A DNA stretch of 64,000 nucleotides from an uncultured Desulfobulbaceae bacterium (GTDB lineage Bacteria > Desulfobacterota > Desulfobulbia > Desulfobulbales > Desulfobulbaceae). The translations under genes were made by a program, and so were the position numbers. Positions 43,170 through 46,060 of this stretch are shown here, piece after piece (the stretch's first letter is position 1; the number at the start of each line of letters is the position of its first letter). The notes beneath the pieces are model-generated. The model made no database searches, had not been told where the DNA came from, and saw only the letters and a list, made by a program, of their open reading frames with translations. The stretch is taken from positions 1-64,000 of the forward strand of contig CAMYLK010000008.1 of NCBI GenBank assembly GCA_947259225.1, written 5' to 3'.

Positions 43170-46060
43170 TGGAGACGTATTAAATCGAGACGAATTAAGT
43201 GACGAATACGCTCAAAATCACTGGATTCAAATCTCTGGTTGGTAAGTTCGTAGTAAAGCTTGGCTGACCAGATGCGGTACCTGTATTCAAGGTAAGAACG
43301 TATACCAATGTTGTCGGTTTCATCTCGTCGTGATGACTGGTGCTGATAAAAACCCTCAAAGCTGAACCGGAGTCCTCGTGCTATCCGCCAGTTGATGTTA
43401 CTTCCAAAACCATAATGTTCAGTCACATAGTCATGTTGGTCATGAGTAACTTCACCATAATTACCTGATACTTTGAATAACATTCTGTTGAAAAATTTGA
43501 ATCTAAATTGCTGTCGCACATTCCATGCTGTTGAATCATTGGCATTACTCGATGATTGAAGATCCCTTACATTAAATTGACTGTCAGACCAGGTACCTAT
43601 CGTGTATTGAATTGTACCGGTCTGGGCAATGTTATCATCCAGGTTTGGGGGAGGTGTCCCGCTAATGACATGCCGGTCAGACATACTTATCGTGTACCCG
43701 AGTCTTAAACTCTTGTAGAGAGAGACTTGCATGGCATATGCCTGGCTGAACTTCCCGTCATCATATTCTTTCTCAAGTATATGGTTGTAATTTACCAGAA
43801 CAGGCTGACCGTTATTAATTGCTCCCAATGGAAGGCGTACGATTCGTACATAATCGCCAATCAAGTCAATCCGGTAATCGATATTCTCAATATAAAATAT
43901 AGTATTCTGGCTGTTTGATACGATAATTGTTGCAGGAATAACCCTGTTATTGGCTATCAGTGTTTCTTCAAGATCATTTAACACTATTTTCTCGTTAAGA
44001 ACCCTTACGGTTTCTAATTGGCTGTCATCATAATTGCGGCGTGTATAATCGTAGTCCCATTTGGAACTGAGCCGAATATGTCCCCAGGAGGTTCTTCTGT
44101 TATAGGTAAGATGAAGGAATGGATCCAACTCACCCTGACTCCCGAACTGCGTGTCCGAAAGTGATGTTTTCAGGCCAAGCCTGGTACGCAGATTATCGTA
44201 AAGCTGATGGTCAAGCTGCGCGCCTGCAGCGTATCTTTCGTTATGGAATCCATCATTATCTTCAGAATTTCTGTATCCTATCCTGAAGAGAGTGTCCAAT
44301 TTTTTTCTGATTTTGTAATTCAGTGTTGATGTTACATTGAATATCTTATTTTCTACATTTCTATACTTGTACCATCTGTAATATGCGGAAGTGTAAAGCC
44401 TGTCGTTATTTTCAGCTATTCTATACCTGAAATTGTTGTTAAACTTAACATCAACTGTTTCCGTTCTCGGTGAGGTTATCGAGGTGGTCAGTGCTTGAGT
44501 TTCCTGCTCCACGTCGGTGTAAACAGCAGTCAGTCCGCTGGTGGTGCGTGCCATACCGTGCTGGAACGCCATAGTGTAATTATCGGTTATTGTCTGCTGA
44601 TTGAAAAAACTGTCTGTCTCGTAATCACTGTGCTGGTAACCGAACCGGGAATGAAAGTTGCCGAATTTTCTGAATTTGTGATTATAGTCAATGTCACCAC
44701 CATACGTATGTGTCAGTGCTTCAACTCCTGGCTGGAAAGGCACCCAGATCGGTTCTTCCCTCCTGGAGGCAAAGAGACGTAGGGTATAGGGCTTGGGATC
44801 AAAAAAAGTCGCGGTTATACCATAATCTGGTGAAAACATATTGATCCTGTTTGTCTTGTCCGGATCCATGTCTTCATAACCCTGAGTGAATTCAGGGGAA
44901 AATTCCAGAGTATACTTCATGATTGTCGGGTGATATACCCATCCGATAGTGGTAAATGAAATCCTTTCGGAAAATTCATGATAGGAATCTGTTATCTCTG
45001 AACCTGCTCTTGTATTCGTCTCATCTTTAAATTCATAGGATAATTTCGCACCTATAAGTGGCGGGCGAATGAAAAAATATTTCCCTTCTATGGGTTTCCA
45101 TGCTTGGGCAGTTCTGCCAAAGGAATACCATGTCGGGGTCTGAGGAAGGGCAAGTGGAATGATAGGAGAAGTCTGGATTTTCCTGAAAGCAGCGCTTTGG
45201 CCAAGCAGGCTTGAGGTGGCCGCCTGTCCGAGTAAGCCAGGTGTGGCCGCCTGGCCGATTAAGCTGGGGTTTGAAGATTGGCCGATCAGGCTGGGGGTAG
45301 AAGATTGGCCGATCAGGCTGGGAGTTGAAGACTGTCCCATCAAGCCGGGAGGTGAAGCCTGGGCTATCAATCCGGGTGAAACAGTCTGTGCCAAAAGGCT
45401 TGGTGCGGCTGCCTGGCCGACCAAGCCTGGTGATGTTGCCTGGGCCACCAGAGCGGGTGTAGCTGCCTGGGCGATAAGGTTAGGTGTTGCTGCCTGGGCT
45501 ATGAGGCTTGGCGTCGATGCCTGGGCGATTATGCTTGTAGCTGCTGCCTGGGCTACCAGGTTTGGAGTTGCTGCCTGGGCGATCAGGTTGGGTGTTACCG
45601 CCTGGCCGATAAGATTTGGTGAGGCAGATTGAGCGAGCAGGCTCGGGGTTGCAGTCTGAGCAATCAGGTTCGGGACTGTTGATTGGCCAATCATGCCGGG
45701 AGTCGCAGATTGGGCGAGCAGGCTCGGGGTTGCAGATTGGGCGATCAAACTCGGGGCGGCAGTCTGGGCTATCAGGCCGGGGGTTGCGGTTTGGGCGAGC
45801 AGGCTTGGGGTTGCGGACTGACCAAATATGCTGGGAGCTGCAGACTGGGCGAGCAGGCTGGGTGCAGTTGCCTGTCCGATCAGTCCAGGAGTGGCCGATT
45901 GTGCCAGAATAGCTGGGGTTGTAGACTGTGCGATTAAACTGGGAGCAACAGCCTGACCAACTAAACCGGTACTCGTAGTTTGAGCGAAGGTGCTGTGCGC
46001 AAAAAATACAAGTACTGTAAATATTAAATATAATATTATATTTTGACGATGAGGTAACAT
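43163..46060 (-). CDS. Outer-membrane beta-barrel protein with N-terminal nonapeptide repeat domain; candidate conduit porin
   Basis: Signal peptide, 29 x 9-aa repeats, then about 670 residues of alternating amphipathic strands with aromatic residues, ending ...HLIRLDLIRLQW. Confidence 0.75.
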   Translation of the reverse strand: MLPHRQNIILYLIFTVLVFFAHSTFAQTTSTGLVGQAVAPSLIAQSTTPAILAQSATPGLIGQATAPSLLAQSAAPSIFGQSATPSLLAQTATPGLIAQTAAPSLIAQSATPSLLAQSATPGMIGQSTVPNLIAQTATPSLLAQSASPNLIGQAVTPNLIAQAATPNLVAQAAATSIIAQASTPSLIAQAATPNLIAQAATPALVAQATSPGLVGQAAAPSLLAQTVSPGLIAQASPPGLMGQSSTPSLIGQSSTPSLIGQSSNPSLIGQAATPGLLGQAATSSLLGQSAAFRKIQTSPIIPLALPQTPTWYSFGRTAQAWKPIEGKYFFIRPPLIGAKLSYEFKDETNTRAGSEITDSYHEFSERISFTTIGWVYHPTIMKYTLEFSPEFTQGYEDMDPDKTNRINMFSPDYGITATFFDPKPYTLRLFASRREEPIWVPFQPGVEALTHTYGGDIDYNHKFRKFGNFHSRFGYQHSDYETDSFFNQQTITDNYTMAFQHGMARTTSGLTAVYTDVEQETQALTTSITSPRTETVDVKFNNNFRYRIAENNDRLYTSAYYRWYKYRNVENKIFNVTSTLNYKIRKKLDTLFRIGYRNSEDNDGFHNERYAAGAQLDHQLYDNLRTRLGLKTSLSDTQFGSQGELDPFLHLTYNRRTSWGHIRLSSKWDYDYTRRNYDDSQLETVRVLNEKIVLNDLEETLIANNRVIPATIIVSNSQNTIFYIENIDYRIDLIGDYVRIVRLPLGAINNGQPVLVNYNHILEKEYDDGKFSQAYAMQVSLYKSLRLGYTISMSDRHVISGTPPPNLDDNIAQTGTIQYTIGTWSDSQFNVRDLQSSSNANDSTAWNVRQQFRFKFFNRMLFKVSGNYGEVTHDQHDYVTEHYGFGSNINWRIARGLRFSFEGFYQHQSSRRDETDNIGIRSYLEYRYRIWSAKLYYELTNQRFESSDFERIRHLIRLDLIRLQW
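45194..45976 (-). repeat. 29 tandem 27-bp units encoding nonapeptide [ATSV]-x-P-[SGN]-L-[ILVM]-[AG]-Q-[ASTQ]
   Basis: Consecutive units counted directly from the translation: VAPSLIAQS TTPAILAQS ATPGLIGQA TAPSLLAQS AAPSIFGQS ... STPSLIGQS STPSLIGQS SNPSLIGQA ATPGLLGQA ATSSLLGQS. Confidence 0.95.

What the first reader, a model, noticed from the sequence alone, without database searches (positions are those of the whole stretch)
45194..45976. 29 tandem nonapeptide repeats (xxP[SGN]L[ILV][AG]Q[AST]) between the signal peptide and the barrel
Seen: unbroken 9-residue periodicity for 261 aa with near-invariant Pro3, Leu5 and Gln8, no Cys and almost no charge. Neighbouring units differ at many bases, so the repeat looks protein-selected rather than freshly slipped, except for near-identical units around 45276-45330. 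I do not recognise it as RTX, pentapeptide or another named repeat. Inference: a periplasmic or surface stalk, beta-solenoid or scaffold organising cytochromes next to the barrel.
Basis: partly seen in the sequence, partly recalled or inferred. Interest (0 to 1): 0.75.

Follow-up and report, generated by a model that had tools for sequence, protein, structure and literature searches.

The report
Nonapeptide array on cytochrome-conduit porin
An outer-membrane barrel protein in a putative extracellular electron-transfer gene cluster carries, only in this one sequenced bacterium, 29 tandem copies of a nine-residue, charge-free unit at its N-terminus; the array is real and looks protein-selected, but its shape and job are not established.

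Summary
Protein 43163-46060(-), 965 aa, has a signal peptide, then 29 gap-free units [AST]x[TAS]P[SGN]L[ILV][AG]Q (45197-45979), then an outer-membrane barrel. Gln is 29/29, Pro 26/29, Leu 25/29, with no charged residue and no Cys. Third codon positions are scrambled (pS 0.70) while protein-changing ones are constrained (pN 0.26), so selection acts on the protein and not on the DNA.

The barrel belongs to a conserved seven-gene block (tetrahaem, NHL, pentahaem, barrel, NHL, undecahaem, octahaem), collinear at 35-48% identity in another genome of the same order. It resembles porin-cytochrome conduits (Oet/Uet type). None of about 33 barrel homologues has the array. They carry a short variable N-terminal linker instead, so the array is a lineage-specific expansion of that linker. 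No other true array turned up: by pattern in 85,488 species genomes, or by profile in 263 genomes of the order and 398 of the phylum.

No Pfam or PDB match exists. AlphaFold2 places a short strand in nearly every unit but at low confidence (pLDDT 41-56), and AF2 is known to over-call beta-solenoids for repeats.

Best reading: a haem-free, beta-prone periplasmic spacer or tether on a conduit porin. The scaffold role is untested.

The parts
43163..46060 (-). 965-aa protein: signal peptide + nonapeptide array + outer-membrane beta-barrel
   Evidence: ORF; barrel homologues 22-38% identical; C-terminal aromatic residue (...IRLQW) as in BAM-inserted barrels (sequence + general knowledge)
45983..46060 (-). 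Sec signal peptide, residues 1-26, cleavage after ...HSTFA
   Evidence: sequence: basic N-region, hydrophobic ILYLIFTVLVFF, AxA-like site; compared with homologue signal peptides
45197..45979 (-). 29 tandem nonapeptide units [AST]x[TAS]P[SGN]L[ILV][AG]Q, residues 28-288, no charge, no Cys
45251..45331 (-). units 25-27, the most recently duplicated part of the array
   Evidence: 81-93% nucleotide identity
45086..45196 (-). Pro-rich linker (residues 289-325) between array and first barrel strand; aligns with the linker of homologue L127
43166..45085 (-). beta-barrel domain (residues 326-965), conserved in relatives
   Evidence: profile matches in 18 genomes of the order at E<=1e-20 including its own; no significant Pfam, NCBIfam or PDB family
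42096..43169 (-). NHL beta-propeller lipoprotein (gene overlaps the barrel gene's 3' end)
   Evidence: Pfam NHL 2.8e-28; 48% identical to syntenic gene in L163
40357..42099 (-). undecahaem (11 CXXCH) c-type cytochrome
   Evidence: 48% identical to syntenic gene
39267..40262 (-). octahaem (8 CXXCH) c-type cytochrome
   Evidence: 48% identical to syntenic gene
46224..46853 (-). pentahaem (5 CXXCH) cytochrome, probable lipoprotein
   Evidence: 35% identical to syntenic gene with a clear lipobox
46865..47959 (-). second NHL beta-propeller lipoprotein
   Evidence: Pfam NHL 2.5e-17; 47% identical to syntenic gene
48134..48808 (-). tetrahaem (4 CXXCH) cytochrome
   Evidence: 48% identical to syntenic gene

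Best explanation
SHOWN: the array is an in-frame N-terminal extension, found in one genome only, of the barrel protein of a conserved porin / multihaem-cytochrome / NHL gene block. It sits exactly where relatives have a short variable linker, and it is under selection at the protein level. INFERRED: the block is a porin-cytochrome conduit that passes electrons across the outer membrane. After signal-peptide cleavage the array hangs from the barrel's N-terminus in the periplasm. Each unit makes a tight turn at P-[SGN] and a short strand at L-[ILV]-[AG]-Q, so the 29 units stack into a haem-free, uncharged, beta-rich rod or compact domain. With two units per rung, as in the RTX beta-roll, this would be about 14 rungs and 7 nm. 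It would act as a passive spacer, tether or packing surface between the barrel and its periplasmic cytochrome partners or peptidoglycan, not as an electron carrier. It arose by duplicating one unit of the old linker, partly in three-unit (81-bp) steps.
For: Array and conservation. Position relative to homologue linkers: homologue L127 reads ALAQTNLPAEQSIKTVPFSPIPKATPSW..GKYFF where the window protein has FAQ-[29 units]-SAAFRKIQTSPIIPLALPQTPTW..GKYFF; two other homologue linkers (L116, L120) are longer, with an internal duplication in L116. Seven-gene collinearity with L163 at 35-48% identity. Three-unit periodicity: unit lag 3, p=0.003 by unit shuffling. A strand in nearly every unit in two AF2 runs. 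Hydropathy +0.47 with zero charge disfavours an extended soluble coil.
Against: AF2 confidence is low (pLDDT 41 and 56; pTM 0.37 and 0.46), and only one of five models in the second run reached it. AF2 over-predicts beta-solenoids for repeats (PMC11795689). No PDB fold match. There is no two-unit alternation that a two-sided roll might show: unit lag 2, p=0.30. All homologues do without the array, so it is not needed for the core function. No expression, localisation or electron-transfer data exist.
Confidence: 0.45

Rival explanations
1. The array is an unfolded or loosely collapsed linker whose length hardly matters: a lineage-specific expansion of a naturally variable N-terminal linker, kept because it does no harm, with composition limited only by export and solubility.
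For: Absent from all homologues, whose linkers vary freely in length and sequence; low AF2 confidence; AF2 bias towards solenoids.
Against: Strict 9-residue register with Gln 29/29 and Pro 26/29 although synonymous sites are near saturation; hydropathy +0.47 with no charge is unusual for a disordered linker.
Confidence: 0.27
2. The array self-associates, amyloid-like through in-register Gln ladders, and clusters several conduits into patches in the outer membrane.
For: Invariant Gln, beta-prone uncharged repeat; polar-ladder beta-solenoids have been modelled for other short repeats such as the roughly 10-aa repeats of the mineralocorticoid receptor (PMC3851330).
Against: Pro in nearly every unit opposes simple amyloid stacking; no aggregation data.
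Confidence: 0.13
3. The array is a surface-displayed passenger pushed out through its own barrel, as in autotransporters, making a stalk that contacts minerals or partner cells.
For: Signal peptide, N-terminal repeat and C-terminal barrel is the autotransporter order of domains (sequence).
Against: No autotransporter barrel domain detected; barrel about 640 aa, not about 280; homologues have no passenger; the cluster is of conduit type.
Confidence: 0.07
4. The array is a DNA-level feature or artefact: slippage, a regulatory repeat or misassembly that merely happens to stay open.
For: A few units are 93% alike at DNA level; the other repeat hits in the global scan are mostly highly periodic, slippage-type repeats.
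Against: Units average 62% nucleotide identity with third positions most variable, so neither DNA function nor misassembly explains them.
Confidence: 0.03

Closest known systems
Porin-cytochrome conduits OetABI of Desulfobacterota (PMC10553843)
   Same: Outer-membrane barrel encoded beside multihaem cytochromes; reported in the class Desulfobulbia, to which this genome probably belongs (inferred)
Undecahaem electron transfer (Uet) cluster of Tenderiales/Gallionella (PMC10734462)
   Same: 11-haem cytochrome, small multihaem cytochromes, a beta-barrel (UetC) and two NHL proteins (UetHI): almost the same parts list
   Different: Uet has a peptidylprolyl isomerase and trihaem cytochromes, not seen in this block; homology of the barrels not tested; no array described in the passage read
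Desulfovibrio ferrophilus DFE_0448-0451 / DFE_0461-0465 clusters (PMC9769857)
   Same: NHL genes next to multihaem cytochromes in a sulfate reducer
   Different: That paper finds no apparent porin-cytochrome conduit there; deleting those cytochromes did not stop Fe(III) oxide reduction
RTX nonapeptide repeat (PMC6891781)
   Same: Nine-residue period; turn plus short strand
   Different: RTX is XUXGGXGXD with Ca-binding Asp and Gly and type I secretion; here no Asp and no GG motif, and a Sec signal peptide
Roughly 10-aa repeats of the mineralocorticoid receptor inhibitory domain (PMC3851330)
   Same: Lineage-specific expansion of a short polar/hydrophobic repeat, modelled as a beta-solenoid with polar ladders
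   Different: Eukaryotic, unrelated sequence, a regulatory protein

Membership tests
Porin-cytochrome conduit (Oet/Uet/Mtr-like) | outer-membrane beta-barrel with signal peptide | tested here: inconclusive
   signal peptide, 640-aa C-terminal domain ending in Trp, conserved in homologues; the barrel fold itself was not predicted or matched
Porin-cytochrome conduit (Oet/Uet/Mtr-like) | co-encoded multihaem cytochromes | tested here: met
   5, 11, 8 and 4 CXXCH in the neighbours, collinear in L163
Porin-cytochrome conduit (Oet/Uet/Mtr-like) | barrel homologous to a characterised conduit porin | tested here: inconclusive
   no PDB chain matched by the profile and no conduit-porin NCBIfam match; direct comparison with OetI/UetC not possible
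Porin-cytochrome conduit (Oet/Uet/Mtr-like) | electron transfer across the outer membrane | not testable with these tools
   needs experiment
RTX repeat | GGXGXD-type Ca-binding nonapeptide | tested here: not met
   no Asp/Glu in the array; no Pfam RTX match
Autotransporter (type Va) | autotransporter beta-domain at the C-terminus | tested here: not met
   no such Pfam match; only sub-threshold Porin_2 at E=0.045
Beta-solenoid repeat protein | regular parallel-strand coil in a confident model or structure | tested here: inconclusive
   strand in nearly every unit but pLDDT 41-56; AF2 bias
Any Pfam repeat family | profile match to the array | tested here: not met
   best is Nucleoporin_FG at E=4.6

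The most novel reading that the evidence does not exclude
A previously undescribed nonapeptide beta-solenoid with a Gln ladder, fused to a conduit porin, that builds an uncharged periplasmic rod setting the spacing of, or clustering, electron-transfer complexes in one bacterial lineage.
Probability: 0.15. Interest if true: 0.65.

Novelty: new variant of a known kind. Interest (0 to 1): 0.42.

Why it matters
It would be the first repeat domain known to us on the barrel of a porin-cytochrome conduit, and it offers a natural length-variable part for testing whether the periplasmic gap between barrel and cytochromes limits electron transfer. It is also a clean case of a repeat with synonymous sites near saturation but no known relatives, which bears on how short repeats become fixed domains. 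If the array is only a tolerated linker expansion, the interest is modest.

Tried and rejected
A search of the genome collection with the single window protein found no relative. The global three-unit pattern scan gave 74 bacterial/archaeal and 9 viral loci. On translation these are mostly highly periodic repeats in short or unrelated frames; they were judged by the local translation only, not by a neighbour search. Profile hits in two other genomes were false: L160 (alanine/valine-rich repeats in a frame with stops) and L166/L167 (a 27-bp repeat, 12.6 copies at 93%, whose open frame reads TGIGEKGGV and which matches only in a frame full of stops). The antisense ORFs 45159-45632 and 45616-45912 are mirror effects of the repeat codons. 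DNA-level function was rejected because third positions are scrambled. Fold search gave nothing significant (best E=6.6). Rfam found nothing in the window. I did not send homologues from the genome search to the fold tool, since its stated rule does not list them, so the barrel was not folded. The AF2 Gln ladder could not be inspected because coordinates are not returned.

Full report
WHAT IS THERE. The ORF 43163-46060 on the minus strand encodes 965 aa: a Sec signal peptide (residues 1-26), 29 uninterrupted nonapeptides (28-288; DNA 45979-45197), a Pro-rich linker (289-325) and a barrel domain (326-965) that ends in the aromatic residue typical of outer-membrane barrels. Counted from the first unit, the consensus is [AST]-x-[TAS]-P-[SGN]-L-[ILV]-[AG]-Q. 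Gln is 29/29, Pro 26/29 and Leu 25/29. The 261 aa hold no charged residue, no Cys and one aromatic; mean hydropathy is +0.47 against -0.71 in the barrel, where 27% of residues are charged.

PROTEIN SELECTION. Across all pairs of units pS is 0.70 and pN 0.26; at the Gln position both codons are used and no replacement occurs. Mismatch by codon position is 0.40, 0.14 and 0.60. Units are on average only 62% alike in DNA. The array is therefore not freshly slipped and has no evident DNA-level role. Neighbours are slightly more alike in DNA (unit lag 1, p=0.0004), and lag 3 is raised in both DNA (p=0.006) and protein (p=0.003) by unit shuffling, consistent with growth by one-unit and three-unit duplications. 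Units 25-27 and 7/10/13 are the youngest. These p-values are for ten lags without correction, and codon-based counts over 27-nt units are approximate.

SETTING. The gene lies in a block, in transcription order: tetrahaem cytochrome (48134-48808), NHL lipoprotein (46865-47959), pentahaem cytochrome (46224-46853), the barrel, NHL lipoprotein (42096-43169), undecahaem cytochrome (40357-42099), octahaem cytochrome (39267-40262). Genome G112 of the same order has the same seven genes in the same order, the six non-barrel genes 35-48% identical and the barrel 38%, with a few extra genes before the last one. The parts list resembles porin-cytochrome conduits, above all the Uet cluster with its undecahaem cytochrome, barrel and two NHL proteins (PMC10734462) and the Oet type found in Desulfobulbia (PMC10553843). 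I infer, and have not shown, that this is an outer-membrane electron conduit. The organism cannot be named with these tools. The class search returned only the same order, which would fit Desulfobulbales; that is a guess.

RELATIVES. Barrel homologues: 17 other genomes of the order at E<=1e-20 and 16 more, outside the order, in a phylum sample. The best are 38% identical. None of the ones read has the array. In the homologues where it could be measured there are roughly 25-65 residues between signal peptide and first strand (cleavage sites by simple rule, so lengths are rough). In L127 the linker QTNLPAEQSIKTVPFSPIPKATPSW aligns with the two ends of the window protein's N-terminal region, as if the array grew inside it. 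The same-genus members gave no barrel match, and in the family only one weak match appeared. The array pattern is absent from 147 relatives, and a profile of the array finds no genuine second case among 263 genomes of the order (the one hit is a false frame) or 398 of the phylum (one false hit). A pattern scan of 85,488 species genomes gave 74 loci, on inspection of their local translation unrelated. That pattern is strict, so diverged arrays elsewhere could be missed, and the window's own or a very near genome may be left out of that collection.

STRUCTURE. Pfam and PDB have nothing for the array. AF2 on the array alone gives a short strand in most units over the first three quarters, pLDDT 41 and pTM 0.37. 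Ten units with the other two thirds of the array as alignment give a strand in every unit, pLDDT 56 and pTM 0.46, best of five models, the others 30-36. Foldseek finds nothing significant. AF2 is known to fold even random repeats into beta-solenoids (PMC11795689), so this is weak evidence, and low confidence despite that bias is itself a caution. The sequence argument is independent of AF2 but is inference: Pro followed by Ser/Gly/Asn is a classic beta-turn, and the rest of the unit is beta-prone.

MECHANISM. Both ends of outer-membrane barrels normally face the periplasm (general knowledge), so I place the array there: a haem-free, uncharged spacer, tether or packing domain beside the cytochromes. 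Rival readings are a passive linker, a self-assembling patch, and a surface passenger. What remains unexplained is that near-saturated synonymous divergence implies an old array, yet no sampled relative carries it. Either the close relatives are unsequenced, or the gene came from an unsampled lineage.

VERDICT. A real, protein-selected, so far single-genome repeat domain on a member of a known kind of gene cluster. I call it a new variant of a known kind, not a new system.

Noticed in passing
11871-13346, 30661-32148, 34322-35836, 35836-37668, 37761-39227, 49406-51019: Six long proteins with TPR-like N-terminal repeats and, by eye, a sulfotransferase-like C-terminal half (motif FIxGMPRSGTSLxEQILS) flank the cytochrome block, three of them consecutive on the plus strand just before it (34322-39227); unusual paralogue density.
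   Followed up: no
L164 (G157:C58), between 7140 and 8030: In this relative the NHL and undecahaem genes that follow the barrel elsewhere are missing: barrel and octahaem genes are separated by about 0.9 kb without a long ORF.
   Followed up: no
L166 (G025:C8), 1396-1735: An unrelated 27-bp tandem repeat, 12.6 copies at 93%, whose open frame reads TGIGEKGGV nonapeptides, in another genome of the same family.
   Followed up: partly
L160 (G532:C1): Long Ala/Val-rich stretch with recurring 9-residue VEGVVARAA-like units interrupted by stops in the matched frame; probably the wrong frame of another repeat gene.
   Followed up: no
L163 (G112), 13798-16810: In the relative, a multihaem cytochrome (460 aa), a TPR protein and a thioredoxin-like TPR protein sit between the undecahaem and octahaem genes; absent at that place in the window.
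   Followed up: no
L131 (G226:C218), N-terminal part of the 783-aa frame: Near-perfect 14-residue repeat (GNRQFDSGSCPHKA) upstream of a probable signal peptide in the frame of a barrel homologue; probably an intergenic DNA repeat.
   Followed up: no
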